Positions 5,106 through 61,492 of a stretch of DNA of 64,000 nucleotides are shown here, piece by piece. Made by a program: the position numbers and the translations under genes. Numbering within the stretch: position 1 is the first letter of the stretch; every line of letters begins with the position of its first letter. The stretch comes from Brachycybe producta (taxonomy: Eukaryota > Arthropoda > Diplopoda > Playtdesmida > Andrognathidae). The stretch is from NCBI GenBank assembly GCA_036925085.1, contig JAUPFP010000001.1, positions 14,951,354 to 15,015,353 of the forward strand, read 5' to 3'. Below the pieces are notes generated by a model that worked only from the letters and a program-made list of their open reading frames with translations, was not told where the DNA came from and did not search any database.

Positions 5106-5111
5106 GACTAC

Positions 5112-5837
5112 CTGAAAAAGATCAAAAAATACGGTAAGAATTTGACCTATTATGGTAGGAAACAGTTTCCACGGTCCAAAACCGCGAAAAAACATTTTCC
5201 GGCCGGGCAGGCACCGTGGTCCACGGCCAAAGCCATCCGCATTGGTAATCGCCCGGTCGGAACCGGCCAAAAACATTTTGGGTTGGTCCAACACCCGTAA
5301 TTCTACGTTCGGTACCTTGGGCGGTGATTTCCACGGTACATCACCGTAGGAAATCCCGTTTCCCCCATGCATATCCCGTGACCCACAGTAAAAACCGTCC
5401 TTCATGGGATTCGCACGGTCGGAATCAGCCAAACAGGTGTTTGGACCGTCCAAACCTGGCACCGTCAATTCAGGTTGCTTGGGGAGTGGTTTACACGGAT
5501 CACCACCGTGCAAAACCACTTTCCGTCCGTTAGAACACCGTGGTTTACGGTCGAAACCGTTCTCCACGGTGGTTTCACGGACAGAACCATGTAAAAACAC
5601 CTTTTCACCGTCTAAACTCCGTAGAACTTGGTCACCACCAAGTTCCACGGCGTTCGGGCGGTAAAACACCGTGTTATGCACGGCCCCATCAGCAGTAGCA
5701 TCACCGTCAAAATTATTACGGTGATGCCTCCACCAAAACCACGTGTTCAAGCGGTCAATGACCGCTTGACACACCCAAAAGCAATACAAGAATACGGCCA
5801 AAGGGCAGGAAAAGGAAATTCCCCTTTGGGGACTTAC
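5112..5837 (-). other. Putative 726-bp intron before the GypA third ORF, filled with ACGGT-rich repeats
   Basis: On the minus strand the segment begins GTAAGTCCCC, a near-ideal donor. It ends with a pyrimidine stretch and CAG (TTTGATCTTTTTCAG), seven bases before the ATG of the third ORF. The related copy on the plus strand has GTAAGTCCCT at 29879 and TTCCCTTTTCTACAG ending at 30341 in the same relative places. Inside, short inverted pairs of CACGGT and ACCGTG recur at roughly 73-base spacing (near 5493, 5567 and 5640). One reading frame happens to be open right through, so an unspliced product cannot be excluded. A spliced third ORF is usual for env-bearing retroelements. Confidence 0.55.
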
Positions 5838-6519
5838 TATTTTCTTTGTAGCATCCAATTGTCCTGAATCTTGTCGTTTTCGCCGGTGAAAAGTACGTTT
5901 TTTTATGATATTAGCGGCAAACGTCCGTCTAAATTGTAATTTGCAAACAAGATGGCGTTTAGCCGCTAATGTCACTGGCGAAACGGCTAACAGCGGCGGC
6001 TTGGCGGCTAAAACATCATTAGCCGCCTCCATTGCTGTTACCATAGAGATTTTACCGTCGTCTGCCACAATAGGAGCAGATACACGGCCTGAATCTCCAT
6101 GGAAAGACTCAGGAGAGAGATCTTTAGGAGAAATAACTTCTGCAGACTCCTCTTCGAGTTTGCAGATGGGAATTGTGGATTTCTCCACCCAGTTCCCCTG
6201 GACAACCGCCATCTGTCCGAGACAGACAGGCGGCGCCCAGTCCAGGGGTCACTGCGCTCCCAATCCTTATTTCCTCGGTTCAGGTCCTCATCCCATACCG
6301 GGGAATGACCGGCTCTTTCCCACCAGGACAGGGACTTCCAAAGTCCGTGCACCACCCTGGTGCCTATTGGAGCTTCAGAGGAAGCTTGCAGAACCTCAAA
6401 AGCCCTGGGTTTCCTCGGACGGAGGTAATACCGGGGCCGAGGTGCTTCCTCTGCCTCAGAGTCAGCTTAGGCTGGCCAGAAGGTCCTGGAGAGACATCAT
6501 CCCTCCTCTCACTTCCAGC
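5838..6519 (-). other. GypA region between integrase and the putative splice donor
   Basis: This non-pol stretch follows the integrase stop. Near 5950-6045 it contains several copies of TTAGCCGC and its complement. The same motif cluster (GCGGCTAAT...TTTTAGCCGC) occurs at 29060-29110 in the second copy, so the segment belongs to the element. It may be leader or exon sequence for the third ORF. No convincing protein is seen. Confidence 0.4.
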
Positions 6520-7443
6520 TTACCCAGACTCAGCATCACTGGACCCTTCAGAGTTCGAGGAGGTTTCAGAGCTACCTAGGCCATCTTCCTCACGAACCCC
6601 ACATGTGGGAACGTACGGCTTCAAGTTATCCAAATGAAACCGCTCCCGCACCTTCCGACCATACCCATCTACGAATTCTATCTCGTAGACCAGGTCGGAA
6701 ACCTGCCGGACCACCGTACCCAGTTCAGCCTTGTAAGCGAAATTCCACTTCTTGGCTTGACCGAGCTTCCCAGCCATAGCCCTTATCCAGACCTTATTAC
6801 CAGGCTGGTACCGGGGTGGCTCCACCCGGCCGGCGTCATACCGGCTCTTCTGTCTGGCTTGAGCGGCCGCCAAATTTTGACGAGCACGCTCCTCCACGGC
6901 TTGCTGGTCGGGCAAGTCGCGGACCGGACCGTTAGGAAGGAGATTGTCAATCCCCAACCTAGGCTCACAACCAAACAACAATTGGTACAGAGACACTTCC
7001 GTGCTCTCCTGCACCGCAGTGTTGTAGGCCCACACGGCGGGCCGCAATTTCTCCCACCAATCACGTTGGTCCTTGAGGGGATCAAGGTAACGTTTGATGG
7101 TTTCCATCACGGTCTTGTTCGTACGCTCCGTAAGCCCATTAGCTTGCGGATGGTACGCCGTCATGAAATGCTGCGCTATATTATAGCGCTCCCGGAACTT
7201 TCGCAAAATCTTGCTACAGAACTGGTATCCACGATCCGAGATGAGAGTAGTCGGAGTGCCATACACCGACAAGATCTCATCTTTCAGAAACTTGACAACA
7301 CAAGCGGCCGTAGCCCGTCGTACTGCCTTTGCTACGCCGTACCAGGTGAAGTAATCCACCATGATCAATACATAGGTGACTCCACCCACGGACGCGGAAA
7401 AAGGCCCAACGAAGTTCATTCCCCAGGCATGAACCGGGTACTA
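6520..7443 (-). pseudogene. GypA integrase (core and C-terminal part of pol)
   Basis: The frame encodes a retroviral-type integrase core. The first catalytic Asp is in VDYFTWYG, the second in ISDRGYQF, and the Glu is in NGLTERTNKT. A C-terminal module (WIRAMAGKLGQAKKW through FHLDNLKPYVP) follows, of the kind that binds DNA or target in Ty3/Gypsy elements. The His/Cys zinc-binding part lies in the neighbouring pol segment, cut off by a TAG at 7441-7443. The related copy at 27680 has a Glu codon (GAG) at that point. The true pol terminator is a TAA at 6520-6522. Integrase would insert the cDNA into the genome. Confidence 0.9.
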
Positions 7444-9656
7444 AGGAACTATGGGTTGCAAGAATCCCTGAGCTCTTGCGAACTGTCGTACTCTCTGACA
7501 CACTAAGCATGACTTAACATACTCCACCGTGTCACGTTTCATACCTAACCAGTAGAAACGAGTACGCAACCGTTGGTAGGTCTTGTACACTGCGAAGTGA
7601 CCAGCTTCGGAGCTATCGTGCAACGTCCGCAAGCAGAAGGCTTGAGACAACCTCGGCACAACCAACACAGTTCTTGTACGATCCTGAATGGATTTGATGG
7701 CATACAACAGCTTGTCTGCCATCACGAACTTGAACCTTAAGTTCGAGTCGGGGTCGGTGGAGAGCTCACGCTTCACCTTGGAGCACCAACTGTCGTTGGC
7801 CTGCTCCATTACCCAATCCACCTCAGACCGGATCCGGTAAATCACCTCACCCACGTCGGCTTCGACGTGTTCAGGCAAAGAAGGATCAACAACTTCATTC
7901 ACCGGATACCGACTCAAACAGTCAGCATCCTCGTGAAGTTTCCCCTTCTTGAACTGAATCTTATACCGGTACTCCGGCAACTGCATTTGCCAACGCCCCA
8001 ACCTGCCTTGCAGGTTTTTGGCAGTCTGCAAATGACAGAGCACATGGTGATCTGTTACGATCACAAAGTCCTGGTTAAAGATGTAAGGTCGGAATTTACC
8101 CACGGCAAACATGATCGCCAAGCATTCCTGCTCGGTGACACTATACCGTGTTTCCGGTCCCTTCATGAGACGGCTAGCGTAGGCCAGAACCCGAGGCGCC
8201 TTGTCCTCAGGTAACTTCTGGTATACTACGACACCTAGACCGTACCCACTAGCATCGGTGTGAATTAACACCTCACCACGTGGATCATACATGGTGAGCA
8301 CCGGTTCTTCGGTTAAAAATGCCTTTAATCGCTCAAACGGTAGACCACACTGCTCCGACCAGTCAAAGGACGCATCCTTCCTGGTCAGATCATGCAGTGG
8401 TCTTGCGATCTTGGCGAAGTCCTTAATGAACCTACGGTAGTAGCCGGCCAGCCCAAGAAAACTTCGAACGGCGGTCACCGTTGTAGGGACATCGAACTCT
8501 TCGACTGCTCTTACGAGACCCGGGTCCGGAGCAACTCCCTCAGCACTTACAATGTGACCGAGATATTTGACTATCAAAACCGAAGAAACATTTCTTCGGC
8601 TGGAGTTTCAGCTCCGCCCCTCGTAACAGTCTCAGGACAGTACTCAAGCGTTCGAGAAACTGCTCAAAGGTGCTCCCGAAGACGATAATATCGTCTAGGT
8701 ACACCTAGCAGCTCTCCCACTTTTGTCCCGCCAACAAGAGGTCTAACGCTCTTTGCATAGTGGCAGGAGCATTGCAGAGTCCGAAAGGCATTTTTCGGAA
8801 CTCAAATAGACCTTGAGAGCAAATGAATGCGGTCTTCTCAATGTCTTGCTCCACCATCCTGACCTGCCAGTACCCACTAGCAAGGTCTAGGGTTGCGAAA
8901 TACTTCGCTCCAGCAAGTGAATCGAGGGCATCATCGATGCAAGGAAACGGGTACTGATCCGCCTTAGTCTAGGCATTCAGTCTCTGATAGTCCACACAAA
9001 AACTAAAGCCACCATCCTTCTTGCGAACAAGCAAGATAGGGCTCGCGTAGGGACTATGCGAAGGTTGGATTACCCCTGCATCCAACATCTTCGCTACCTC
9101 TTCTTTCGATTGCACGAGCCGCCGGAGCGGTTCTTCGCAATCCTTCACGCACCGGAGGTAACCCACCGGTATCAATAGTGTGTTCGACGAGCGGCGTTTC
9201 CCCCAGCTCTGTATAATCGAATGCAAAATGATCACGGCGTTCCAGCAGGAACTCCCGAAGCTGTGCCACCTCCTCAGGCTTCAGACTAGGTCCGATTTTA
9301 AGGCACTCTTCGAGAGTGGGTCTAACTTCCGCATTGATGACCCGGCAACCTTTCTTGGTTGCCCCTCTCAACTTAGGTGGAAGCCCCCCTGGTCGACCAT
9401 CTCCATGAGTGGGGTCTCCCCCTCTCAACTTAGATGGATCGTCCAGTCCCACCACTAGGGCTGCCTACACAGCTTGAGCTGTTGCCACACCCTCCCCTGT
9501 CTCCAGGGCAATGGGTACATCGGCGACGTTCTCAAGCCAAATGTCGTAAGAGCCTTCCTCTGTGGCTTCGGCAATTCCTGCCACTGCCAACAGACCACGA
9601 CCACCTAAGGCTTTACGATGGGGCTCAACGAGAAGCAGCTGTCCAGGGCCAGCATG
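7441..9656 (-). pseudogene. GypA reverse transcriptase, RNase H and integrase zinc finger (broken)
   Basis: From the 9.4 kb end downward come: the pre-RT linker; the RT fingers (SPYASPILLVRKKDGG, CVDYQRLNA near 8975-9060); the palm with TLDLASGYWQV; the YLDD active site at about 8690-8702; the thumb (FLGLAGYYRRFI); RNase H (LIHTDASGYGLG, TDHHVL, EDADCLSRYP); and an HHCC-type integrase finger ending CLVCQR. The sense of the element is clear, but it is interrupted. TAG codons lie at 9465-9467, 8969-8971, 8705-8707 and at the 7441 end, and two frame changes lie near 9060-9235 and 8577. The best RT match is the Ty3/Gypsy (Metaviridae) type. It is not functional as written unless TAG is read through. 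Confidence 0.9.
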
Positions 9657-10814
9657 CTATATCAAGCTCACCGAAACTACCTTCCGCTCATGAGCTGATA
9701 ACCATACGTTCTCCAACAGTCGCAGGGAACAAACTTCCCCGCTCCTAATTGGAGAACTGGTCTCGGCAAGCGCGGGTGACACAATGTCAACCCACCCATC
9801 CACCTTTTCAGGCTCCGCAGGCATACCTTCCGGGAACCCAAAAGGAGGGAGTAGCAGAGGCTCCACAGAATCGTGAAGCCTCGCCAACGCCTCCACCACC
9901 GAGTTCAGAAGGTGTACCGAAGTACTCTGCAAAACCTGAACGGCCAGTGCGGCATGAAGAGCATCTGTATGTGCATTCCAGATGTCTTCCCGGAAATACA
10001 CTTTCCGGCTCACGACGTCCAACATTAACCCAAACTGGGAAGCCAGGTCAACACCTATTACGGCTTCCCCTTCACCCTCAATGAGGAGAAGATGGGTATG
10101 GATGGACCGTCCGTGGATTGAAATGTCCACGTACATGACTCCTATCTTGATGGAGTACCCGCTCATGCCCGTAAGGAATGAGGGGAGGCTAACCTCCTGC
10201 ACCGGTAACTCCATCTCCCGTGCCACGGACATGCTCATGACCGATACTTCGGCCCCGGTGTCGACGATCGACTCAACCAGTCGACCATCCATCGACACCA
10301 GAACACGCGGTGCCCCACGCAAGTATGCACGGCTCTGTAATTCTGGAATGGGCAACCGTCGTTGCCCGACATTACTTCTCTGAGCCTCATCCGCTCTCCC
10401 GTCCCCAGGGGACGGTCGTACCGGATGCCCAGGGGCCTGGCTTCCAGTCTCCACTCCAGGAGACTCACCAGGCCTGGGCGACAGCATGGGCGCACCAATG
10501 CTCGAAGCCCTCGTAATGCCCATACCATTCGGACCTTCCTGCCCCTCATCAGGGAAGAAAGGTGCCACCCAGCTCTCCTGCCGGGCAAGCGCAGCTTCCA
10601 GTGTGGGGCTTGGCTCCTGAAATACCCACTGGGTAATTTCTGGGAACATAGACCTAGCCAGAGGCACCCCTGCTTCATGCAGGATACCCACATATCTGGA
10701 GACTGCCCGAAGGTACGCTCCTTCTTTACTCCGCCGGCTTTGCCGGGCACCTGAGTTTTCAAGCATTACCGGTCGACTGCAGCTCAGTTCTGCAGGGACC
10801 GGCACCGGTTTAAC
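9657..10814 (-). CDS. GypA aspartic protease region, -1 frame relative to gag
   Basis: This 382-codon open frame has no ATG near its start and overlaps the end of gag in the -1 frame, so a Gag-Pro-Pol fusion by frameshifting is the simplest reading. The retropepsin motif ESIVDTGAEVSVMS is at about 10245-10285, and the second family motif, AVIGVDLASQFGL, is about 85 residues later. It would act as a homodimer to cleave the polyprotein. The frame ends at a TAG (9657-9659). Beyond it the same frame continues as plausible linker sequence toward RT, so this stop is probably not the natural end. Confidence 0.8.
   Translation of the reverse strand, partial: VKPVPVPAELSCSRPVMLENSGARQSRRSKEGAYLRAVSRYVGILHEAGVPLARSMFPEITQWVFQEPSPTLEAALARQESWVAPFFPDEGQEGPNGMGITRASSIGAPMLSPRPGESPGVETGSQAPGHPVRPSPGDGRADEAQRSNVGQRRLPIPELQSRAYLRGAPRVLVSMDGRLVESIVDTGAEVSVMSMSVAREMELPVQEVSLPSFLTGMSGYSIKIGVMYVDISIHGRSIHTHLLLIEGEGEAVIGVDLASQFGLMLDVVSRKVYFREDIWNAHTDALHAALAVQVLQSTSVHLLNSVVEALARLHDSVEPLLLPPFGFPEGMPAEPEKVDGWVDIVSPALAETSSPIRSGEVCSLRLLENVWLSAHERKVVSVSLI
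10769..10814 (-). promoter_or_regulatory. Predicted -1 ribosomal frameshift signal between GypA gag and pro-pol
   Basis: On the minus strand the gag frame reads G TTA AAC at 10814-10808, 26 bases before the gag stop codon. After a 5-base spacer comes a two-part hairpin at 10802-10769: CCGGTC pairs with GACCGG, then CTGCAG pairs with CTGCAG around a 7-base loop, with a C bulge on one side and a TC bulge on the other. GTTAAAC is the heptamer known from equine arteritis virus. The protease frame lies in the -1 phase, as this signal would require. Confidence 0.6.
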
Positions 10815-12601
10815 GAGGGCGGGCCCTCGTTTCTGGCGACAGGCAGATAGAACATCTGTCCATCAATTACGGTGGACAGATACTCTCGGCCCTGCAGTAC
10901 CACGGGTGCTAAACCCGTCAGGTACCTCGCCACTGGGCTTTCGCCCGGTGGTACTCGAGCAACCTGTCTTTGGGCAACAGCCTTCGGACAGTCCTTCCTA
11001 AGGTGACCCATCTGGTTACACCGAAAGCATGGACCAGGTTGCCTACGAGTAGGACCTCCACCTCCAGCCGTTTGGCTGGAACCTGACGGCGCTGCTGTGG
11101 ACTTATTTCCACCCTGGCTCTGCCGCTTCGTCTTTCTTTCCTTCTGCCCTCCGGACTTGGCAGTAGCTCCGTCCGCTTTGGACGGTGCCGCTGCCTTCGC
11201 ACCTGAAGAGGTAGAAGTAGACGTAGCAGAGCTCTTGGGCTTTGCCACAGCACCAGAGACCTTGGCCGCAGCCTGGGTCCCTGGTACCATCAAGGTATGG
11301 GCAGGTAACGCTCCCGCCGTAAGCATGTCGGCCTTGACCAACATTGCCTCGGTGGTAAAGTCCCTGACCGTCTCAGCTTTCGATCTCCAGAGAGGTCTGA
11401 GAATCTCCGGCTGCAGTTTTTTCTTATATCGGAGGAGTCGACAAGACTCATCCTCACCAGGAGAAACTCGTTCCGCTAGCTCAACAAAGCGCCAATAGAA
11501 CGCCTGGAGTGATTCCGCAGGCCCTTGCTTCATGGCCTCGAAACGGACAAAACAGGCCTGAGCCTGATTCTTGGTTCCGAAGCGGTGAAGCATCGCCTGC
11601 CTCAACTCCGGCCAGGTTAGGTTCGGCTTGAACTCCACCAAACAGGCGTAATGTTCCTCAGCCGGACCATCGAGCAGGTACGTATAGAAACTGCACCTGG
11701 CCTCATCCGTCCAGCGCTGAGCCCTAGCTTTGGCTTCAAACTGCTGGAGAAAAGGCGTAATGTCCTCTCGTCCATCATACCGGATGAACGAGTGAACCGG
11801 GTTAAAAAACCCAAACGCCTGGATCTCCGACGACACAGCCAGTGCAGGCGTCTACGGCGCGGTACTTACCCGCTGTGGTGCCCTGCTCCAAATCCCCGAA
11901 GTCTCAGCATCAGGTTCAGCATCCACGGGATCCACCAAGTGGACCCGCGGTCGCTGAACGGGCGGAAGAACTCCCCGACCACCTCCTGCAGGAGCGGTCC
12001 GAGTTCCTCCTCCTGGAGGCATCCGCCTGGCCGGAGCCGGCGGCGCCTCCCTCCATACAGCTCGGTGCACGGGCGACGGTGTGAAGTGAGGGTGCTCCCT
12101 GTGGAGCCTCTGACCCACTGGGGAAAGATAACCCTGCCACCACAGTTCATCAATCTCCATGGCAACCTCACGGAGCTGCTCCTCAGTCATCGACACCAAC
12201 CATGACGTCGTGTTCACCGAGGATGGCTCCGGGGTCCCTACCACCTCTCCCGGAAAGGGATTACCTCCACGTCCAACCTGACGGGAGGCAGTGGAGGTTA
12301 ACAGGCCGGCCATAGGCCGTCCGCCTGTCCCAGTCGGGGTTGGTAACCCTCCATCACCACCGTCGGCCGGTGCTTCCCCGGAGACAGTGCCACGACAGTG
12401 CGACCGCACCGTCACAAAGTCTCCAGCCGGAGGTTGGTCCGTAGGGTCAATCTCTACGACACCTTCCTCCGTGGAGTCACCGGGTACGTTCCCGCCGACA
12501 GCACCCTCAACAGGGTGCTGCCCCTCCGGCCGCCTACCACGGCCGACGGTGCGGGAACGCAACTCCAATCCTTCCAACAAACTGCTTCCCCGACCAGACA
12601 T
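10784..12601 (-). pseudogene. GypA gag with one in-frame TAG
   Basis: The first ATG is at 12601-12599. The frame runs to a TGA at 10784, interrupted only by a TAG at 11852-11854, for about 605 codons. The first 250 residues are Gly/Pro/Thr-rich. The centre (around YTYLLDGPAEEHYACL and LTWPELRQAMLHRFG) matches the Retrotrans_gag capsid fold. Next is an Ala/Ser/Lys-rich linker, then one CCHC zinc knuckle CFRCNQMGHLRKDCP, which would bind the RNA genome. Gag forms the virus-like particle. The 3' end overlaps the protease frame. Confidence 0.85.
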
Positions 12602-13270
12602 CGGGAAAACAGGGTCTTGGCCGATTTCGTCCGTGCGAACACGGGCAAAACTGGCCACCACTTGTCGGAAGGAACTCTACCGTAAAATACGGTGAATTTA
12701 CGGACAAAAGTCCGCAAAACACCGACAATTAACGGTAGAACCGTAAACTACCACAGTTTCACGGACAAAAGTCTGTGTCCCACGGTCAGGTTTACGGTGG
12801 AGCTTCTTCTTACCGTTTTCGACCGGTTATATACGGACAACCGTCCGTTATTCACCGTCTATTCGCGGTAAAAAGCTCTTTCACCGTCCTAGAACGGAGA
12901 TACACGGACAACGGTCCGTAATCTACCGTCCACCAACGGTGAAACTGTCTTTGTACCGTGTTTGAACGGTGATTCGCGGACAAAAGTCCGTAATCCACCG
13001 TCTACTTACGGTAAACCTTGACCGTAACCCGGTTTTACCACGGTATCACGGACAAAAGTCCGTGTCCCACGGTATATCACCGGTGAACCTGGCCATAGAC
13101 GGGTTTCCGCCGTAGTTCCACGGACCAAAGTCCGTGCCCTACGGTGTACTACCTGCTACGGTAAAGTTACCTTTTTACCGAGTTCTACCGGTCCTGCACG
13201 GTAAATCACCGTGCTACCGGTATACTAACGGTAAAAATAACTGTTATCCCGCGTTCGGACCCACAGTCAT
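12602..13270 (-). repeat. GypA 5' leader made of about seven 72-bp hairpin repeats
   Basis: The motif ACGGAC, 2-4 bases, then GTCCGT (a short hairpin) occurs at 12701, 12762, 12834, 12905, 12977, 13049 and 13121, that is at steps of 61, 72, 71, 72, 72 and 72 bases. ACGGT and ACCGT words fill the spacers. The segment sits upstream of gag, where a leader or 5' intron would be. It stops at the TA microsatellite without an LTR, so the 5' LTR and primer site are lost. No gene is seen in it. Confidence 0.8.
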
Positions 13271-14165: not shown

Positions 14166-14235
14166 ATATATATGTGTGTATATATATGTATATATGTGTG
14201 TATATATATGTATGTGTATATATATATATATATAT
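13271..14235. repeat. TA/TATATG microsatellite, about 965 bp
   Basis: Blocks of (TA)n, TATATG and TATATGTG follow each other without a break. Long open frames exist on both strands, but they only encode Tyr-Ile-Cys-Val repeats and are artefacts. LTR-X has inserted into its right part, and the repeat resumes at 21184. Confidence 0.97.
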
Positions 14236-15126
14236 TGTAACGAACCACCTTGTGGTGGATAAAATATACCAAAAAGCGGTTGGCTAAGCCGCTTATTTTA
14301 TCCTGGTTCGGGAGGAAGGGAACAAATTAATCCCTTTTCCTATTCCTCACAAGTTCTTCCTTGTTGAACTTTTACAGTAAAATGGATCTTTTAGCTGTCT
14401 GCTACCCCTCGGGCTTTCGCCCGTTAAAAGCTAGTTGATCGTGCTGTCCCTTGAAGTTGCATCTAGAAGTGTTGATCCGGGTTTTCACCCGGATTGATAA
14501 TTCGAGATGAAGATGATTTCAGAACTTTCGTTCTCTCCATAAGTATAAGAAATAAGACTTGGCAATTTTCAAAGTATACCATTTGTTTATTTACAATTCC
14601 ATTCTAGTCTTTAAAAAGACTGTTCTCTCTGAACAAACTTGAGCATAGATTCGTTGTCTCAAGAGTGCTTCAGTGAATGCTTTCTTTTACACAAAAATAC
14701 ACGGCCTTTTATACCCAAAAAGAGGATACTGAGAACCATTTCTCAGTATTCTCTGATTGGGCAAAATCGAAATGAAAAACCAAACTGGCCAATCAATTTG
14801 ATTGACCAGTGGTCACCAAAATATAGAAATATGATTCATCCTTTAAAAACAATAATTTTCCAAGAAAAATACAACCCCATTGACTTAATGCTACTGCTTA
14901 TCAGCATGATCTTTTTGTATTAAGGGGTGGGACTGGGAGAGAAAGAGACCCAAGACCCAAGAGGTGACCCAAGACAGGATATTGGCGTTGTCAGCTGAGA
15001 GAACTAGGTCAATCCTCTGTACATCCGTACAGAGGGTTGACAAAGTTCCAGGCCAATTCAAAAACAAAAACAAACGATCCACAAAAAACTAAGTGAGCCA
15101 GGAGCGCTCCTGGACTGATCGTTTCA
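14236..15126 (-). repeat. LTR-X 3' LTR (891 bp)
   Basis: On the plus strand it runs TGTAACGAACC...GATCGTTTCA, so each strand shows TG...CA termini. It contains several perfect hairpins: CCACC/GGTGG; a nested pair GGATAAAATA/TATTTTATCC around AAGCGG/CCGCTT at 14258-14305; CTCTGTAC/GTACAGAG near 15015; and the palindrome CCAGGAGCGCTCCTGG near 15098. The small ORFs in it recur identically in the other LTR and are not genes. Confidence 0.95.
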
Positions 15127-15140
15127 CCCCCCCCCAACTA
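15127..15140 (-). other. LTR-X polypurine tract
   Basis: On the minus strand TTGGGGGGGGG directly precedes the 3' LTR. It is the expected plus-strand primer and fixes the element orientation. Confidence 0.8.
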
Positions 15141-15728
15141 AGCATGAAGTTCGTCCCTGAACTTCACACTGGTAAGCAGCCGCATTAAGTCAAAAACAAA
15201 TCCCTTTTTGAAAAATTTTCACTTTGCATAACCAAAAATAAAAATATACAATTTGTACCAATAAAAACAATATCACAGGTTTCAATTTGACTCATCACAG
15301 TTGATTTGTAACCCTGAAATCCCTTAGACCCCCGAAAATCAATTTACCCCCATCAAATTTGTATTTAAGTTCGACTAGAACATACCCAAAATACAGAAAA
15401 AATTTAAAAATAACCTATATCTTTTTCATCGATAAATATACAAAGAAAAACGTATCCACGAACTTTAATTTAAATTCCATCTCCCTCCCAAAAACCCTGA
15501 CTAATTAAAAACAAAGTTAACGGAAGGTTAAACCCTTTTTAACCCTCCCCCTAAAAAGAATGTTTTAAAAGAAATTAATTTGGCCCCAAATTAAATTTCT
15601 AACCCACAAATTAAAACAGATTTTAAAACCCCCAAAAGAAAACGAAAATTCAAAATTTTAACTTTTAAAAAGAAACCCCTTATTTTTCTTTTAACCCCAA
15701 AAATTAAAAATAAAAACAATTTGAAAAA
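15141..15728 (-). other. LTR-X 3' noncoding region
   Basis: About 590 bases rich in A and C on the plus strand (runs of AAAA and CCCC) lie between the end of the long ORF and the polypurine tract. No ORF, motif or repeat unit was recognised. Confidence 0.6.
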
Positions 15729-15818
15729 TTACGCTTCCTCGCTGACTCGTTCCTCTGGTTTCCTCAGCGTGGATCGGAACTGGTCCATGCTGGTCCTTTT
15801 TCGGTCCTGGTCCTCCGT

Positions 15819-18776
15819 CTAGTGGTCCGGCTCGAGATGTCCCTGCTGATCTCTGGCTCCTGGTTCCGCCTCCGTTGAAAGGATGTTAAGGTCCTCCAAC
15901 ATCCTAAGGGGAACGACTTGTGACCGTGGGATTGCTCCCAATATGATGGACTCCATGAAGTCCAGTTGTTGAGTGGCCAGATGCGCATTCCCATCCTGCT
16001 CCTTGAGTCGATGATGAACCACGTTGCGGTGTCCTCGGCTACTGGGGATCAGGGTCGCTACCATCGAAGAGATGACCACTTCCAGGATGTTACTTGTCGA
16101 CTTGTCCCAAGGCTGCGGGTAGATGAGTTGAAGCGTCCCTGGCTCGGCGTTGTCATGAAGGACAACGACGGGCCAATGATCTAAAACCTGAATGATTACT
16201 GCAGTCCAGGGCCGGTCCAGTCGCGGACGGAGTCGATCTTCCTTAATGCCATCGTCACTGTGGAAGAAACCTAAATACCTGAATACATTTCTTCCCCAGC
16301 GTCGCCCAAAAGACACCAAACTGTTCCTTAGGAGCCGAAATTGCTGTCGGTTGGAAAGCTTTCCATCCGACATATCCAGTCGGTCCTTTGGCCATTGTTG
16401 AGGAGGTGGTGGTGGAGAGACCTTCGGGATCGCTCCCGTGGGTGGTCCAGGCGCTGGTCGGCTTGGATGCCCGCGTTCCCCTGCGAAGATCTGGTCACGA
16501 CGTTCCCTCCTCCTCTCTGTTGCACCTTGTCCTTTCCTGGCCTGTCCAGGTATGTGGGGATGGCGAAACGGCTGGATTCTGGCCGTCTCGGATCTCCTTG
16601 GTGGGTCCCTTGACTCCTCCCTCGGTCCGGTTCTTCGTTCCTCTTGAGGCTGACTTCTTGTGACGTCTCCTTGGCGTCTTGGGTCCCTTGGCCTTTCAGC
16701 AACGAATTTTTCCCTGTCGGGCCGAGCGGGATTGCTCACCGCTGGCGGATAAGCGTCTCTCCTCGGATCTACGACTTTAGAAGCAATGGAGACCCTCTCC
16801 ATTGCCCCAGACAAAATTAATGGTTTGTTAGGTTGGTGCACATACCCTCTGACGACTGGTTGGTCCACCGTGACCCAGCTGTTTGAGGGGGAGACATCCC
16901 TTGGCGTTGTCCTTTTTGGTAAAGCTGTTCCCACTGCTGGCACCTTGATCGGGGACCGTCCCCTAGCCGCAAGTTCCTTATTTTGCCCCTTTATCCAATC
17001 CTGCATTGCCTTCTTATCGGCATTCCTTTCGCCTTTCGTCCGGCCACTCCTTCGAGAGCCCCCTAGCTCTGCTGGCAGACATCCATCATGTAGACTCCCT
17101 GGTGGAGTATCCATCTCTTCCGGTGGCCTGGGAAATTGTAGAGTTGGGTCCCTGGCGGGCCCTTCATAGACGATCTCCGGCTCTGGATTGCCGCTTCGAC
17201 GCTGTTCGGGAGGCGAGTGCATTAGCGGAACGAAATTAGTTAGCTCACCCTCTGGCGTCTTCCTTTTCTTCGTTTTCGAAGATCCTTTTGCTTTTTCCTT
17301 TGTGGGAGATGAAGGCACGGCATTGCTGCCGGGAGGGATCCCTGCAGCGATGATTTCGTCGTCTTCTTCCCCAAAAAGCATCCTTAACCAATCCGGCGTC
17401 ATTTCGCCGGTATCCATCAATATCTCCAATTCGGATGCCTCTTCGGTCCCAGATGCTCCCTTATCTATGAATCCAGCCATCCTCTTTCTGATTATTCCCT
17501 TTTTAGACGCTGACACTTTTTTCTTTTTGAAAAAACTCGACACGCGACTATTCTTTGCAGAATCACAATTCGAAGTGGCGTCCAAAATGGCGGTTGTCTT
17601 CTCACGTGATCCTGTGGGGCTTACAAATTCAATTTCCGGCCGGAAGTGGGAGGAGCTTTTACCCAAAAAGTCTCTTCCTCCTTTTTCTCCCACCAGGCGG
17701 CGCTCCATATAGCGGCAAATTTGAATTTTGGCCTCTCCTTTACACAATTTGGACGTTAATGCATCGTTTGATGGATTTTTAACGCCAAATTGTTCCTTTT
17801 TAGGAGTCAATTGAGTTTTAGAGTTCTCAATCATTGTTCCTACCCGTGTTTGCACACGGGAGGCTGTAGATGTCTCTCCTATAGAGATATTTTCGGCCTG
17901 CCCGCGTGTCTTTTTCCAGAATTCCTTTTTGGACATCCTGTCCGTGGTTTCCTTTCGTTTTTGATGACCACCCTGATCATCTTTAGTGCCACCCTGACAC
18001 TTTTCCATTTTCGCATCTTCCCTATAAAGATGCTCCTTTTTAGTTCCACCCTGGAACTTTTTGTTTCGAGGCGTTTCTTCCCTATGAAGATGTTCCTCTC
18101 CTTTTTCAGGAGCAGCTACTCCTAGCTTCACTGCAACCTGTTTCCCATTGGACCGCACCATGACATCCACCTTAGATGTCTCGATGAGCCCACTTTGCAG
18201 TGACACTGTTGGTTGGCATCCCCTATAGACGCTACAACTTCTGAGGCCAGTTGCAAAGTTCCCATTTTGTTCCTTTACAGGAGCAGTTACTTCCTTTTTC
18301 ACTAACTCCTGTTCCTTTACAGGAGTAGCTACTTTCCTTTTCACTGACTCCTGTTCCCTGAAGGGCTTAGTTTCGACATTTCCTTTTAATGTCTTGACGG
18401 CCCCACTTTGCAGTGGTTTCTTGAGTTGACCTCCCCCATGGATGATACGACTTTCGATTCCAACTGCAATTTCCTTTTTCGATGTCAGTCTTGTTGAGGC
18501 TATTTGTCGTGCTACAGCTTGGCTTCCTTTTTGTTTCTTTGCAGGCACCGTATGTCGGTCATTTTGGCACAGGTCTGTGGGTTCCCCTATAGATCCCTCC
18601 TGTCGAACCTCGATGCACATAACGCGTGGTTGCTCGGAGACTTCCCTTTTTTGCCGAGTTGCAGCTTGGACTCCCTGATGACTCTCCAAGTTGACTTCGA
18701 TTTTTCCGTTATCCTTTTCCGTAATTGTTTCAGTTTCGGGCGTCACTACTTTGGGGCTGAGTGGCGCCCTTAGAAG
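15819..18776 (-). CDS. LTR-X ORF2: large protein of unknown function, expressed by -1 frameshift from gag
   Basis: The frame is open for about 985 codons from the slip site to a TAG at 15819-15821. It starts without an ATG (the first in-frame ATG is more than 40 codons in), as expected for a frameshift product. Residues 1-550 are Lys/Glu/Thr-rich with short repeats (PVKEQ twice, EHLHREE and EHLYRED, QGGTK twice). Residues 550-790 are Arg/Pro-rich. The last 180 residues look folded, with RPWTAVIIQVLDHWPVVVL near residue 860. That core resembles the His-Trp strand of Ulp1/C48 peptidases, and a later EQDGNAHLATQQL stretch sits where the Gln...Cys motif would be, but Cys is absent. No protease, RT or integrase signature is present. 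After the TAG the frame stays open for 29 more codons to a TAA. Function unknown. Confidence 0.85.
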   Translation of the reverse strand, partial: LLRAPLSPKVVTPETETITEKDNGKIEVNLESHQGVQAATRQKREVSEQPRVMCIEVRQEGSIGEPTDLCQNDRHTVPAKKQKGSQAVARQIASTRLTSKKEIAVGIESRIIHGGGQLKKPLQSGAVKTLKGNVETKPFREQESVKRKVATPVKEQELVKKEVTAPVKEQNGNFATGLRSCSVYRGCQPTVSLQSGLIETSKVDVMVRSNGKQVAVKLGVAAPEKGEEHLHREETPRNKKFQGGTKKEHLYREDAKMEKCQGGTKDDQGGHQKRKETTDRMSKKEFWKKTRGQAENISIGETSTASRVQTRVGTMIENSKTQLTPKKEQFGVKNPSNDALTSKLCKGEAKIQICRYMERRLVGEKGGRDFLGKSSSHFRPEIEFVSPTGSREKTTAILDATSNCDSAKNSRVSSFFKKKKVSASKKGIIRKRMAGFIDKGASGTEEASELEILMDTGEMTPDWLRMLFGEEDDEIIAAGIPPGSNAVPSSPTKEKAKGSSKTKKRKTPEGELTNFVPLMHSPPEQRRSGNPEPEIVYEGPARDPTLQFPRPPEEMDTPPGSLHDGCLPAELGGSRRSGRTKGERNADKKAMQDWIKGQNKELAARGRSPIKVPAVGTALPKRTTPRDVSPSNSWVTVDQPVVRGYVHQPNKPLILSGAMERVSIASKVVDPRRDAYPPAVSNPARPDREKFVAERPRDPRRQGDVTRSQPQEERRTGPREESRDPPRRSETARIQPFRHPHIPGQARKGQGATERRRERRDQIFAGERGHPSRPAPGPPTGAIPKVSPPPPPQQWPKDRLDMSDGKLSNRQQFRLLRNSLVSFGRRWGRNVFRYLGFFHSDDGIKEDRLRPRLDRPWTAVIIQVLDHWPVVVLHDNAEPGTLQLIYPQPWDKSTSNILEVVISSMVATLIPSSRGHRNVVHHRLKEQDGNAHLATQQLDFMESIILGAIPRSQVVPLRMLEDLNILSTEAEPGARDQQGHLEPDH

Positions 18777-18782
18777 TTTAAA
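18738..18782 (-). promoter_or_regulatory. -1 programmed ribosomal frameshift signal of LTR-X
   Basis: On the minus strand the last gag codons read GCT TTA AAC TTC TAA. The heptamer T TTA AAC (18782-18776) is in the exact phase of a canonical X XXY YYZ slip site. Six bases later (TTCTAA) a hairpin begins: GGGCG, mismatch C-A, CACT pairs with AGTG, CGCCC, with a 12-base loop, occupying 18769-18738. Spacer length, stem length and phase all match known -1 signals, and the -1 frame is the 985-codon ORF2. The slip would yield a Gag-ORF2 protein of about 1,458 residues as a minority product. Confidence 0.88.
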
Positions 18783-20194
18783 GCCTCTTCGGTCAGATTT
18801 TCCTCATGAAAATAGTGCGTCACCCCATTGATGTCGACAGGCACCAGTCTCATACCATTTGGCAGGACGTGAGTTTCGTAAACTTCGACAGTATTTGAAA
18901 CTTGCGTCGCCGTCGTTGCCAACGGTTCGTCGACTCTGTTTACAGGTGTCGGTGTAGCCGCAGCAACGCTCCTTCCTTGTTCCGGTTTGGTTCTAGCAGG
19001 ATTTGGGCAGTCACGACCCATGTGGCCCGCCTCCCAACATCGGTAGCAGATGAGCGGCCCCTGATTTTTGTTCCAAGGAGTTCTCTGTCTGTTTTGATGT
19101 TCCTTGTCTGTCCGTTTCGGTCCTTGATTGTCAGCCTTTTCAGGCGGATTCGACACCGTGTCTTGTCCGCTTGATACCTTTGGTTGACTTTGTTGATTTG
19201 CTCGATTCGGCTGGCTTGCGCCCGCTTTGGTTGTAGTTCCAGCCGAGTTTTTGTAAATCAACTCCTTTTCATCAACGAGTTCACCTTCAGTTTGAGTGGT
19301 GAAGCGAATGAACTCGTGATACCGATCCTTTGGCGCCCCATACAGATGTTTTCGAAGTGCTGGTAGCAGACTCTTTCGGAGCGTAGCTATCAGCAAAGAT
19401 TCATCATCATTTGGGTGAATCCTTCGATACATCTCTGCATATTTTTCAGCATAGACCCTGAAAGTTTCGTGGTCTTGCTGGCGCCTCTCAATCAACTCTC
19501 GATTCATGCGGACTTTTTGGTCCGGCAGGAGAAATTCGGCAATGATTCCCTCCTTCATAATCGACCAGGTGATCTCTTGTCCCTCGTAAGCAGAGCGGAA
19601 GTGTGCAAGCCATTTTATTGCACGCTTCCGTAAGAGCCCTGTGAAGTGTCTGCATCGCTGCAGGGAGTTCCAGTCATGTGCGGTAGCGATGTCTTCGAAT
19701 TCTTCCACATAGAGAAGGATGTTCTCGTCGCCCTCGTATTTCGGGAATCCCTGCAGAGGATGTAACGAATTCCTCTCAGAGTATGGCGTAGGTCCCAGGT
19801 CCGGTGTCCATTTGGTAGTTTCATCCGGACCGGGCTTTCGCCCGGGTTCGATCGATTCCAATTCAGTGTTGATCGAGCCCGCTCTCTTCTCGCTTCGTTC
19901 GTCGCCCAGAATTTGACGAACCAATTCATCCTGTTTTTCCTTAGACAGTTTACCAATGATGTCGGCAATGGCGGCGTGTTCTGGCGTCTTGCTCCCATCA
20001 TTGGACTGCACCTCAGGCTTGACAGCAACAGGAGTTGGTGGAAGTACTTCGGTTTCCTCCTTGGCCTCCTCCAGTTGAGTACGTTGCCTCTTCACGATCC
20101 TTTTCAACGCAGCAGTTTTCTTCTTTCGACGTCGTTCCTCCCTCAGTCTCTCGAGGTCCCTCAGATCTTTAAGTAGCTTTTGAAGACTGGTCAT
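18770..20194 (-). CDS. LTR-X Gag (474 residues)
   Basis: The ATG at 20194-20192 lies about 100 bases after the 5' LTR, and the frame is intact to TAA at 18770. Residues 1-60 form a very basic and acidic coiled-coil-like segment (LERLREERRRKKK). Residues about 135-290 match the Retrotrans_gag capsid domain (LLYVEEFEDIATAHDW, REL.ERRQ, FRVYAEKYAEMYRRI). A single CCHC zinc knuckle CYRCWEAGHMGRDCP is at about residue 383. It would form the particle and bind RNA. Its end overlaps the frameshift site. The Gly-Met-rich tail (about 75 residues after the knuckle) is a plausible spacer. Confidence 0.95.
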   Translation of the reverse strand: MTSLQKLLKDLRDLERLREERRRKKKTAALKRIVKRQRTQLEEAKEETEVLPPTPVAVKPEVQSNDGSKTPEHAAIADIIGKLSKEKQDELVRQILGDERSEKRAGSINTELESIEPGRKPGPDETTKWTPDLGPTPYSERNSLHPLQGFPKYEGDENILLYVEEFEDIATAHDWNSLQRCRHFTGLLRKRAIKWLAHFRSAYEGQEITWSIMKEGIIAEFLLPDQKVRMNRELIERRQQDHETFRVYAEKYAEMYRRIHPNDDESLLIATLRKSLLPALRKHLYGAPKDRYHEFIRFTTQTEGELVDEKELIYKNSAGTTTKAGASQPNRANQQSQPKVSSGQDTVSNPPEKADNQGPKRTDKEHQNRQRTPWNKNQGPLICYRCWEAGHMGRDCPNPARTKPEQGRSVAAATPTPVNRVDEPLATTATQVSNTVEVYETHVLPNGMRLVPVDINGVTHYFHEENLTEEALNF

Positions 20195-20272
20195 TTCTGA
20201 CGTCGATTATTCTCTGCTGCGTGTTTTTCAACACGATTTTCGTAGCTTACGGAGTAACAAGTTGTTCAACTA

Positions 20273-20288
20273 CCCGGCGCCTCCACCA
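20273..20288 (-). other. LTR-X primer-binding site
   Basis: Four bases inside the 5' LTR the minus strand reads TGGTGGAGGCGCCGGG, complementary to a tRNA 3' end (CCA tail included). It is closest, from memory, to tRNA-Ala ends; the exact tRNA is not certain. Confidence 0.75.
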
Positions 20289-20292
20289 AATT

Positions 20293-21181
20293 TGTAACGA
20301 ACCACCTTGTGGTGGATAAAATATACCAAAAAGCGGTTGGCTAAGCCGCTTATTTTATCCTGGTTCGGGAGGAAGGGAACAAATTAATCCCTTTTCCTAT
20401 TCCTCACAAGTTCTTCCTTGTTGAACTTTTACAGTAAAATGGATCTTTTAGCTGTCTGCTACCCCTCGGGCTTTCGCCCGTTAAAAGCTAGTTGATCGTG
20501 CTGTCCCTTGAAGTTGCATCTAGAAGTGTTGATCCGGGTTTTCACCCGGATTGATAATTCGAGATGAAGATGATTTCAGAACTTTCGTTCTCTCCATAAG
20601 TATAAGAAATAAGACTTGGCAATTTTCAAAGTATACCATTTGTTTATTTACAATTCCATTCTAGTCTTTAAAAAGACTGTTCTCTCTGAACAAACTTGAG
20701 CATAGATTCGTTGTCTCAAGAGTGCTTCAGTGAATGCTTTCTTTTACACAAAAATACACGGCCTTTTATACCCAAAAAGAGGATACTGAGAACCATTTCT
20801 CAGTATTCTCTGATTGGGCAAAATCGAAATGAAAAACCAAACTGGCCAATCAATTTGATTGACCAGTGGTCACCAAAATATAGAAATATGATTCATCCTT
20901 TAAAAACAATAATTTTCCAAGAAAAATACAACCCCATTGACTTAATGCTACTGCTTATCAGCATGATCTTTTTGTATTAAGGGGTGGGACTGGGAGAGAA
21001 AGAGACCCAAGACCCAAGAGGTGACCCAAGACAGGATATTGGCGTTGTCAGCTGAGAGAACTAGGTCAATCCTCTGTACATCCGTACAGAGGGTTGACAA
21101 AGTTCCAGGCCAATTCAAAAACAAAAACAAACGATCCACAAAAAACTAAGTGAGCCAGGAGCGCTCCTGGACTGATCGTTT

Positions 21182-21183
<2 letters not shown>
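20293..21183 (-). repeat. LTR-X 5' LTR (891 bp)
   Basis: It has the same length and, by eye, the same sequence as 14236-15126. In the element's sense this copy would hold the promoter. A TATA-like element is not obvious, while AT-rich stretches lie near the middle. Confidence 0.95.
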
Positions 21184-22610: not shown

Positions 22611-22674
22611 GTAAAATATTTATAAAATGTTTATTACAAGTAATTACTAATATTTACTAATAAATTTAAAACAG

Positions 22675-24704
22675 ACTACACAAGAGCAAGGCCATCAACA
22701 GCAGGGTCGTCTTTGACTGATGTGCACCTGACATCAAAACCACTCATGACCTGTCATGTGTGCGATGAAGAGCTATTCACCCCTTTTCATGTTAGTGAGC
22801 ATCTAAGAAACCAATTTCATCGAATAAGTATGGGGGAAAGCATTTCTGAAGAGGAGGAAGATAAAAATGAACAGATGAAGAGACTTGAAAACATCAAATG
22901 TGGCGAAATTCAAATCCCAAGTAATGGCACTACCATTTACCAAACACCAAAAAAAATCCTGCCATCCACCTGTACACTGCAAACATCAAGTTCTGTTGAG
23001 AGACATTTATTAACAGTGAAGAGCATTCCAAAAGAACTGCCGAAGCTGACGGGGCGTCGGATTGTATCATTTTTAAATCTAATAAAGTTCATAGAAAATG
23101 TCAGTATCCATGCAACGAAATGCACGGCATCGAGATTGTCCTTTAAGAAAGAAACATCTATGGGGCTACATTCGAGAATGACTTTTGAGTGCAATGCATG
23201 CAGAAGATGCATTGTATTTTCTACAGAAAGTAATGAGGCCGAGCCAGTAGTAAATAATGCTGCTGTACTGGGATGTGCCAGCATCGGAATTGGCCATCAA
23301 CAGCTAGAGGAGCTCTTAGCTGTTATTGGCATACCTTGCATGGCACAACAAACATTTCAAGCTGCAACAAATCAAATTCACTACAAACTGAGTGAAGTTT
23401 TAAAGGAGTCCATGAAAGATGCAGCAATGGAGTCAAAACAAAGAGCAATGGAAAAAAAAAACACAGATAATGATGGTGTTCCTTGGCTGACTGTTGTAGT
23501 CGACGGTTCTTGGGCCAAAAGGTCATACAAGCATAGTTATAATTCGTTGTCTGGTATGGCTGCTGTCTTTGATCTCGAAACAGGAAAGCTCATCGACCTG
23601 GCAGTCAAAAACCGGTATTGCCCTAAATGTGCTGTGGCTCAAACAAAAGGTGTCAATCCTGAGGAGCACTGTTGTTTTAAAAACTGGATAGGGTCTGCAG
23701 GTGCAATGGAAGCCAATATAATTGCAAAAGCATTCGCAGAGAGCGAAAGCAAGTATGGAGTACGTTATAAGTACGTGATTGCTGATGGCGACTCAAAGAC
23801 TTACAAGGCAATTTGTGAGACTTTAGTGTATCCAGTTACGAAAATAGAGTGCACAAATCACCTTATTCGTTCGTATGCGTCTAAGATAAGAAAGATACCA
23901 AATGATACTAGGATCAGCCTCGAGGAGAGACGGCTTCTAAATCCAGATAGGGTTAACCGTCTTATCAGCGCCGTTAGAGGAGCAGTAATGCGAAACTTTT
24001 CCTCAAAATGTTCCAAAGAGGAAAAGATAAAGGCACTGAAAAAAGACCTTGCACATGGTCCTGTTCATGTTTTTGGAGACCACACAGAGTGTGGTAACTA
24101 CTGTAAAAGAGATGCAAGCGAACCGAATGATGTTCCCTTAGTACAGGGAGGTCTACTGTGGGAAATCATCATGGCCACGATGAGAAGGCTGAGGGACCAT
24201 GCTGACAGCCTAGTAGAGCATTTAACTAACAATGTTGCAGAGCAATTCATGAGTCTTATATGCAAAGCCACAGGCGGAAAACGAGTCAACTTCTGCATGG
24301 GAGCATCATACACAATGAGGGTTTATTGTGCTGGTTTGAACCAGTTACATGGACCTGGATGGCAAGTTGAGGCCAGTAGGAAAATGTATCCTAAACAGAC
24401 CCCACCATCTATATTGATGAAGATGGCACAAAAGCGAAGAAAGAACTTAGCATTCAAAGAGAAGTATAGAAAAAGACTTTGCCTTGAAGGTGAATATGCT
24501 AAACATTTAAGAAGAAAAGAGGCTCTCATGTCCTCCAAAGAGTCTCGTAAGCACTACGGAGAATCAATGGATTTTGAAGACCTTCCAAAGGAAAAACTGA
24601 AAAAGAAAATGAACGAGCATGTTATCAGTTTATCAATTGATAAAGGACAACAAGCAGCACTAGAAGTTGCAAACCATGGAGGGTCAAAAATCCAAAATGG
24701 ATAA
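22675..24704 (+). CDS. Mutator-like transposase domain protein (main exon)
   Basis: The exon opens after TTAAAACAG and is open for about 676 codons. A C2H2-like pair (CHVCDEELFTPFHVSEH..NQFH) is near the start. The central block is the Mutator-like transposase domain: DGSWAKRSYKHSYNSLSG supplies the first Asp, CPKC...CC...NW a metal-binding patch, ADGDSKTYKAI a second Asp, and KIECTNHLIRSYASKIRKI the block before the helical part. A C-terminal domain with VEHLTNNVAEQFMSLI follows, then a basic tail. Such proteins move DNA transposons by cut-and-paste. The frame ends at a TAA at 24702-24704, beyond which nuclease-like sequence continues in other frames. Confidence 0.85.
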
Positions 24705-45918: not shown

Positions 45919-46540
45919 TTCTGCTACTGTGTTTAAGACACAACCTGTGCTTACGAACTTTTAAGAAAATGTCATCTAAATTTGAAAATACAATGATATG
46001 TACCCTTTATACTTTAATTTTAGTTTCAATGAACTTGTAACTTTCCTGTAGGCTAGGTTAAAAAGTTAATCAGGTCCTAGGCCCCATAATGCTAAAACAT
46101 TGATTCATTGGAAAATTTGTGCTATTTTGTTCAAAATCATGTTGAGAATTGGTGGCACTCTGTTCTTTTATTTGTGTCCTTAACCTGTCATAAAAGGGCA
46201 GAAGAGTTAAATTGAAAAGGAAAAGTATTTATTATACCAGAACATATAGAAGTTATATGTACAGGCAAAATCAAATCAAAAAGCAGAGCAATATACTTTC
46301 CTTTGTTTTAGCACAAGGGATATGTAACACTTATCCTCATTAAAGACAGTGGGCCATTTTAGGGGGGTGAATCACAAAGGGTGCTGAACCTAGAGAAGCA
46401 TTAAAAGGGTCAACTAATTTTTACTAGTTTAATTTTTTTAAATTAAATACACAATTTTGGTTTAGGAGTGAAATAAAAGTGAAGTGAAATATTGTGTTGC
46501 TCTGAATAAAAAGGAGTAATACCCAACAAAATTTTATAAA
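45919..46540. other. AT-rich intergenic DNA
   Basis: Nothing recognised apart from general A/T richness. Confidence 0.4.
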
Positions 46541-49140: not shown

Positions 49141-49346
49141 GTACTGAGGGCATAAAATACTCAGGGCAGACCAAAACCAAACCACGCCATTGCCGGTCCC
49201 CCAGCCCGGGTGCAAAAGTGGAGGGTCGACGTCAGGTTGGCAGCCGGTTGTAAAGATTTGCCAAAACATATGATGTTGGTTCGAAATAGTTTTCCGAATA
49301 TGGCTAGGGCGTCCCCGCCATAAGCGACGCGCAGCTGCAACGCCCG

Positions 49347-61009: not shown

Positions 61010-61492
61010 ATGTAACCAACCAAAATTATTTATATTTGTCAAGGTGTAAACCAACCAAAAATTTTAAGTTCTATAAGCATAAACCAACCAAGATTATTTA
61101 GAATTCTCAATGTATAAAACCAAAATTATTTAGAGTTCTAAATGTATAAACCAACCAAAATTATTTAGAGTTCTGAATGTGTAAGCCCAAAATATTTTAG
61201 AGTTCTGAAAGTGTAAGCCCAAAATATCGTCTAAGTTCTGAATGTGTAAGCCCAAAACATTTTAGAGTTCTGAATGTATAAGCCCAAAATATTTTAGAGT
61301 TCTGAATGTATAAGCCCAAAATATTTTAGAGTTCTGAATGTGTAAGCCCAAAATATTTTAGAGTTCTGAATGTATAAGCCCAAAATATTTTAGAGTTCTG
61401 AATGTATAAGCCCAAAATATTTTAGAGTTCTGAATGTATAAGCCCAAAATATTTTAGAGTTCTGAATGTGTAAGCCCAAAATATTTTCTAAG
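61010..61492. repeat. 32-bp minisatellite
   Basis: The unit TTTAGAGTTCTGAATGTR followed by TAAGCCCAAAATAT is repeated about ten times with near identity from 61170 to 61480. Diverged AACCAACCAAAATTATTTA versions lie to the left. Confidence 0.95.

What the first reader, a model, noticed from the sequence alone, without database searches (positions are those of the whole stretch)
18738..18782. Textbook -1 frameshift signal joins LTR-X gag to a novel 985-codon ORF
T TTA AAC is in the gag phase, 3 codons including the stop end the frame, the spacer is 6 nt, and a 9-bp stem with one mismatch follows. The -1 frame is an uninterrupted ORF with no ATG for over 40 codons. In retroelements such a signal normally leads into protease/pol; here it leads into a protein with none of those domains.
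Basis: partly seen in the sequence, partly recalled or inferred. Interest (0 to 1): 0.88.

Follow-up and report, generated by a model that had tools for sequence, protein, structure and literature searches.

The report
Retrotransposon keeping frameshift, losing polymerase core
A jumping element that appears to have lost the enzymes it needs to copy itself still keeps the ribosome-slipping signal that once produced them, and seems to use it to attach the leftover tail of the polymerase protein to its shell protein.

Summary
On the minus strand of a young LTR element (identical 892-nt LTRs), gag ends T TTA AAC TTC TAA, followed by a 9-bp hairpin; the -1 frame is open for 985 codons after the slip. 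Heptamer, stop and spacer are unchanged in 30 of 30 loci. Against a second family (ORF2 69% identical), only 2 of 942 twelve-codon windows are identical, both at this hairpin.

"Novel ORF2" needs correcting. Relatives with a related gag (73% in capsid) carry the same signal before frames of about 2205 aa. Those frames hold a pol marker and end in homologues of ORF2's second half: residues 505-700 at about 57%, 790-994 at about 42%. ORF2 is best read as a pol frame missing about 1,200 residues of enzyme core, still joined to Gag by frameshifting.

Its second half is under purifying selection (pN/pS 0.28 and 0.18; linker 0.90), so Gag-ΔPol probably works, with enzymes supplied in trans. This is a new variant of a known kind (Athila, IAP 1Δ1). 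RT and integrase in the relatives are inferred, not read.

The parts
20292..21183 (-). 5' LTR (892 nt matched between the two copies; TG...CA)
   Evidence: identical to the other LTR over 892 nt; flanked by ATATA on both sides, ambiguous inside a TA repeat
20264..20290 (-). leader just inside the 5' LTR (primer-binding-site position)
   Evidence: 72 genome sites with <=2 mismatches, control 0; 49 of 72 have a site listed 0.8-2.5 kb on, most often at 1505 nt; 0 of 72 pair with the 90 sites listed only; tRNA not identified
18770..20194 (-). gag ORF (474 codons from ATG), capsid-type domain plus CCHC zinc knuckle at 19001-19048
   Evidence: Retrotrans_gag 2.3e-6 and zf-CCHC 1.6e-4, both above cut-off
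18776..18782 (-). slippery heptamer T TTA AAC
   Evidence: in gag phase; conserved in 30 of 30 loci and in related families
18770..18775 (-). 6-nt spacer containing the gag stop TAA
18738..18769 (-). stimulatory hairpin, 9 bp with one C-A mismatch
   Evidence: the only two identical 12-codon windows out of 942 between families 1 and 2 (L031 v L059) lie here
15819..18803 (-). ORF2, -1 frame, 985 codons after the slip: read as a pol frame without its enzyme core
16704..17291 (-). ORF2 residues 505-700, shared with the C-terminal part of about 2205-aa pol-type frames
   Evidence: 57-63% identity, E about 1e-50
15822..16436 (-). ORF2 residues 790-994, C-terminal domain shared with about 2205-aa pol-type frames
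   Evidence: 41-43% identity, E about 1e-40; pN/pS 0.18 in family 1
15127..15135 (-). G9 purine tract abutting the 3' LTR
   Evidence: sequence
14235..15126 (-). 3' LTR

Best explanation
This is a young, non-autonomous, gypsy-like LTR retrotransposon. Shown: gag ends at a conserved -1 frameshift signal; the same signal stands behind a related gag and in front of long pol-type frames elsewhere in the genome; the second half of ORF2 is homologous to and collinear with the C-terminal part of those frames. Inferred: ORF2 arose from such a pol frame by loss of about 1,200 residues (protease to integrase); a minority of ribosomes slip and make Gag-ΔPol; this protein joins Gag particles and gives the element's own RNA an advantage through the retained C-terminal domain (assembly, RNA choice or target-site choice), while RT and integrase come in trans from pol-bearing relatives.
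For: Signal unchanged in 30 of 30 loci and nucleotide-identical between two families over the hairpin, while ORF2 as a whole differs at pS about 0.58. Of the 100 listed sites (of 293) of a related pattern, 65 have the pol marker 0.2-3 kb downstream on the same strand, at modal distances of 1206 and 1266 nt; 49 of the 65 are in the -1 frame, and 29 of 32 where the frame is at least 1600 aa. Of 30 marker hits in 2000-2249-aa frames, 29 have the ORF2-type C-terminal domain in a frame of the same length 3-6 kb on. Residues 505-700 precede it in order. Of 54 gag hits at 72-73% capsid identity, 50 have the marker 1-4 kb downstream. A protease follows the signal in L064: 30% identity, E 1e-12, to the window's neighbouring Pfam-positive protease. 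ORF2 selection in 9 disjoint pairs of 18 intact family-1 copies: pN/pS 0.90 linker, 0.28 middle, 0.18 C-terminal domain.
Against: The protease was read in one broken copy only. The 27-nt leader of this element is not near any of the 90 sites listed only, so the trans partner is not identified. The linker is only weakly similar to ORF2's linker beyond the first 16 residues (E 0.067 and 0.003). 16 of the 65 matched sites have the marker out of the -1 frame, and 35 of the 100 sites had no scored marker. The most divergent pairs, which carry most changes in the selection test, include copies with a broken gag (L033, L049, L050). No expression data.
Confidence: 0.82

Rival explanations
1. The signal is a relic: ORF2 is translated by reinitiation or from a spliced RNA at Met62 (a VMCI context also seen in family 2), not by frameshifting.
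For: First Met is residue 62 and the flanking residues match between the families; the linker is nearly neutral, pN/pS 0.90.
Against: The frame stays open from the heptamer in 20 of the 30 loci L031-L060 and the hairpin is the best conserved stretch of ORF2 between families; many pol-type frames are long enough to run from the signal to the tail.
Confidence: 0.1
2. ORF2 is a captured host gene or a new gene unrelated to pol.
For: No match in Pfam or NCBIfam, best PDB match E 0.17, none at E <= 0.01 among 7994 scored database candidates for residues 480-994.
Against: Its second half lies collinearly in about 2205-aa pol-type frames behind the same signal and a related gag.
Confidence: 0.03
3. 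The direction is reversed: an ORF2-only element was older and one lineage inserted the pol enzymes.
For: At least two ORF2 families exist, and 0 of 28 pol-type group-B frames has an ORF2/A-type tail among the rows scored.
Against: An element without enzymes could hardly have been the ancestor on its own; both pol-type groups share signal and gag.
Confidence: 0.04

Closest known systems
Athila pol-less families, Arabidopsis (PMC2410132; abstract and passages read)
   Same: Families without pol keep intact ORFs under purifying selection and are thought to be mobilised in trans by pol-bearing families.
   Different: Those keep gag and an env ORF; here the kept part is the C-terminal end of the pol frame itself, reached by a -1 frameshift signal.
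IAP 1Δ1 subfamily, mouse (PMC7411935; passages read)
   Same: A deletion in gag-pol gives a Gag-Pol fusion said to help in cis, while Gag and Pol are still needed in trans.
   Different: There the deletion itself creates the fusion; here gag keeps its stop and the fusion would need frameshifting; the part kept is a tail of unknown fold.
PNMA3/PNMA5 (PMC5009743; passages read)
   Same: Gypsy-derived genes with a classical -1 signal leading into sequence without pol domains.
   Different: Immobile host genes with a pseudoknot; here a mobile, multicopy, recently inserted element with a simple hairpin predicted.
Retand elements, plants (PMC11963269; passages read)
   Same: Gypsy elements with a long region between pol and the 3' LTR, some copies non-autonomous.
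   Different: There the extra ORFs are antisense to gag and pol; here the extra region is the same frame as pol.
TR-GAG, BARE-2, Dasheng (names recalled; search listing only)
   Same: Non-autonomous LTR elements with gag or less (recalled).
   Different: As recalled, no frameshift-joined partial pol frame.

Membership tests
Programmed -1 ribosomal frameshift site | X XXY YYZ heptamer in the upstream frame | tested here: met
Programmed -1 ribosomal frameshift site | spacer of 5-9 nt (range recalled) and downstream structure | tested here: met
   6 nt, 9-bp hairpin; energy z -2.9 over 41 nt but -0.8 over 76 nt
Programmed -1 ribosomal frameshift site | conservation beyond coding need | tested here: met
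   4 of 30 loci have a change inside the stem
Programmed -1 ribosomal frameshift site | measured frameshift product | not testable with these tools
   needs reporter or mass spectrometry
LTR retrotransposon | paired LTRs with TG...CA, target duplication, purine tract | tested here: met
   the duplication ATATA is ambiguous inside a TA repeat
LTR retrotransposon | tRNA primer-binding site | tested here: inconclusive
   leader conserved but no tRNA matched; ARAGORN found none in the window
Ty3/gypsy (Metaviridae) autonomous element | pol with protease, RT, RNase H, integrase | tested here: not met
   no such domain found in ORF2
Ty3/gypsy (Metaviridae) lineage | RT phylogeny | not tested
   no RT core letters held for the relatives; gag matches Retrotrans_gag
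Non-autonomous derivative of a pol-bearing group | shares coding parts and signal with pol-type relatives | tested here: met
Non-autonomous derivative of a pol-bearing group | shares leader with the partner | tested here: not met
   27-nt leader at <=2 mismatches: 0 of 72 sites pair with the 90 sites listed only; 1 of 72 (C18) pairs with a TAC-type site whose downstream is unknown; LTRs of pol-type relatives not compared

The most novel reading that the evidence does not exclude
Gag-ΔPol is a purpose-kept parasitic protein: by frameshifting the post-enzyme domain of a relative's polyprotein onto its own Gag, the element steers mixed particles so that its own RNA is chosen or its copies are placed, while borrowing all enzymes. 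The retained domain would then be a separable cis-preference or targeting module of a new kind at the end of gypsy-like pol.
Probability: 0.3. Interest if true: 0.75.

Novelty: new variant of a known kind. Interest (0 to 1): 0.55.

Why it matters
As I recall, many enzyme-less LTR elements keep only gag or nothing. This one keeps the frameshift signal and a selected, unnamed C-terminal pol-frame domain while having lost the enzymes, which isolates that domain from RT and integrase. Comparing families with and without the enzymes shows which part of the polyprotein an element must make for itself, an open point in how non-autonomous elements compete with their helpers.

Tried and rejected
Structure: AlphaFold2 on the C-terminal domain alone gave pLDDT 45.7, pTM 0.33, so no fold search was made. 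Relatives outside the genome: none at E <= 0.01 for ORF2 480-994 (7994 candidates scored), none at E <= 1e-5 for gag (7996 scored). PDB: ORF2 best E 0.17, gag 0.48, protease piece 0.74; the pol marker matched designed armadillo-repeat proteins at best E 0.003, taken as a composition match. The DTG triplet at ORF2 residue 464 was considered as a protease relic and rejected by eye, since its flanks do not resemble the L064 protease. The neighbouring gypsy-like gag (10784-11851) is 21% identical to this gag and its overlap with the next frame has no canonical heptamer, so it is not the partner. Papers: eight searches were answered. In the titles and abstract openings listed I saw no frameshift-joined, enzyme-deleted pol frame; only open-licence papers are searched.

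A spacer base does not tell the types apart. Of the 17 exact TAC sites, by eye 2 have the pol marker downstream, 5 have ORF2-type hits (C1:14441441, C5:1592718, C12:2426051, C19:3134829, C26:853990), 1 has only an A-type tail (C17) and 9 show nothing scored.

Counts with limits: own-genome searches score only the best candidates (150 of 1582, 150 of 348, 150 of 2181), and pattern tables list 100 sites (of 293, of 360), so counts are of what was listed. One search used 56 of the 150 rows; one search repeated the group-B check with 112 rows, the rest being ORF2 families. The gag pN/pS (0.18) includes codons upstream of the gag ATG; the cross-family 0.19 does not.

Full report
What is there. The feature lies on the minus strand of an LTR element at 14235-21183. 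The two LTRs are identical over 892 nt, begin TG and end CA, sit inside a TA repeat with ATATA on either side, and a run of nine G abuts the 3' LTR, so the insertion is recent. The 478-codon gag frame matches Retrotrans_gag and zf-CCHC above cut-off. It ends GCT TTA AAC TTC TAA. The T TTA AAC is in phase, six bases separate it from a 9-bp stem with one C-A mismatch, and the -1 frame is open for 985 codons after the slip, with its first Met at residue 62.

Is it more than chance. Folding energy alone is weak evidence: z -2.9 over 41 nt but -0.8 over 76 nt. Conservation is strong. In 30 of 30 loci (L001-L030, the window's own copy included; 40 of 363 candidates were scored) heptamer, stop and spacer are unchanged; changes inside the stem occur in four (L025, L027, L029, L030). 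In the overlapping set L031-L063, 32 of 33 loci hold the heptamer, L054 not. A 27-nt pattern with up to 3 mismatches finds 360 sites in the 295-Mb genome and none with the pattern reversed.

A second family. A search with ORF2 found a family whose ORF2 is about 1050 aa and 69% identical over aligned codons; its 3' end, LTR included, is about 75% identical to this one over 820 nt. Between one copy of each family (L031, L059) ORF2 differs at pS 0.58 and pN 0.20, gag at 0.44 and 0.08. Of 942 overlapping twelve-codon windows of ORF2, two are identical in nucleotides, both at the frameshift hairpin; six have no synonymous difference. That is good evidence that the signal is kept as RNA.

Pol-type relatives with the same signal. 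A further version of the pattern (TAC before the stop; 17 exact sites) led to L064, a broken copy. There the gag tail, heptamer, stop and stem are followed by nearly the same first -1 residues (15 of 16) and then by a retroviral-type protease, 30% identical (E 1e-12) to the neighbouring element's protease, which passes Pfam cut-offs; L064's own Pfam match is below cut-off (E 0.0096). The next 237 aa were used as a pol marker. I take its end for the start of RT from recalled motifs; no library names it. It finds 150 scored places (of 1582 candidates), many in frames of about 2205, 1703 or 1948 aa. I compared these with the 100 listed sites (of 293) of a pattern ending CTCGC. 65 of 100 have the marker 0.2-3 kb downstream on the same strand: 37 of 68 with TAA and 28 of 32 with TAG after the heptamer. 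The modal distances are 1206 and 1266 nt. The marker is in the -1 frame in 24 of 37 and 25 of 28; among frames of at least 1600 aa in 11 of 14 and 18 of 18. The other 35 sites had no scored marker. Of 54 gag hits at 72-73% capsid identity, 50 have the marker 1-4 kb downstream, and 17 of the 100 sites have such a gag hit upstream.

What ORF2 is. The last 205 residues of ORF2 match the 2205-aa frames at 41-43%, and residues 505-700 match the same frames at 57-63%, in the same order. Of 30 marker hits in frames of 2000-2249 aa, 29 have the C-terminal domain in a frame of the same length 3-6 kb on. None of 28 group-B frames (about 1703 or 1948 aa) does among the rows scored. So ORF2 is the pol frame of a group-A-like element without roughly 1,200 residues (2205 less 994). 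Beyond its first 16 residues the linker is only weakly similar. That the missing part is protease, RT, RNase H and integrase is inferred from the protease in L064, frame length and position.

Is ORF2 used. In nine disjoint nearest pairs of 18 intact family-1 copies, pN/pS is 0.90 for residues 8-390, 0.28 for 391-789 and 0.18 for 790-994; between families 0.64, 0.27 and 0.10. The linker is nearly free and the second half is constrained. As some constraint may date from pol-bearing ancestors, the within-family pairs matter most. The most divergent pairs contribute most changes, and some of their members have a broken gag, so this shows selection during the life of the family, not in its very latest copies. 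Fifteen of the 18 also have a full gag frame.

Mechanism. Shown: the signal, its conservation, the homologies, the constraint. Inferred: ribosomes slip at T TTA AAC, a heptamer listed among the most slippery with mammalian ribosomes in PMC5009743 (passages); Gag-ΔPol is incorporated with Gag; the missing enzymes come from relatives. The 27-nt leader of this element (72 sites) is near none of the 90 sites listed only; one copy on C18 pairs it with a TAC-type site whose downstream is unknown. Which relative helps is therefore unknown, and the original helper may be another or extinct group.

Comparison. Athila families in Arabidopsis lack pol, keep intact ORFs and show purifying selection (PMC2410132, abstract and passages). 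IAP 1Δ1 elements have a gag-pol deletion whose fusion protein is said to help in cis while Gag and Pol come in trans (PMC7411935, passages). PNMA3 has a -1 signal without pol domains but is an immobile gene (PMC5009743, passages). Retand elements have a long region after pol, with antisense ORFs (PMC11963269, passages). The present case combines the first three: mobile, enzyme-less, still carrying a frameshift into a selected pol remnant. My searches of open papers listed no such case in titles or abstract openings, which is not proof that none is in print. I rate it a new variant of a known kind.

Noticed in passing
window 22644-24704 (+): Mutator-like transposase frame of 686 aa (PF20700, E 6e-84) about 1.5 kb beyond the element's 5' LTR.
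   Followed up: no
window 2703-12676 (-): A second gypsy-like element with gag, protease, RNase H and integrase zinc domain in separate frames; its gag is 21% identical to this one and its gag/protease overlap holds no canonical heptamer.
   Followed up: partly
window 49308-52310 (+): A 1000-codon open LINE-like frame with endonuclease and reverse transcriptase domains.
   Followed up: no
G000 C1:18351340-18353748: A family-2-like ORF2 stretch lies in a 2494-aa open frame, the longest frame with an ORF2 hit; not read.
   Followed up: no
G000 pol-type group B (e.g. C14:435127): These carry TAG instead of TAA after the heptamer with the rest of the matched signal kept.
   Followed up: partly
G000 C5:2612960, C3:8599031, C2:1515609: Three sites have the pol marker 1153 nt on, out of the -1 frame, one in a 2094-aa frame; possibly a linker deletion or a second recoding step.
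   Followed up: no
G000 TAC-type sites C1:14441441, C5:1592718, C12:2426051, C19:3134829, C26:853990: Older, broken ORF2-type copies (about 49-68% identity) behind the TAC version of the signal, perhaps a third ORF2 lineage.
   Followed up: partly
window 46518-47581, 56190-56610, 61105-61551: Tandem arrays with about 94-, 13- and 32-nt periods.
   Followed up: no
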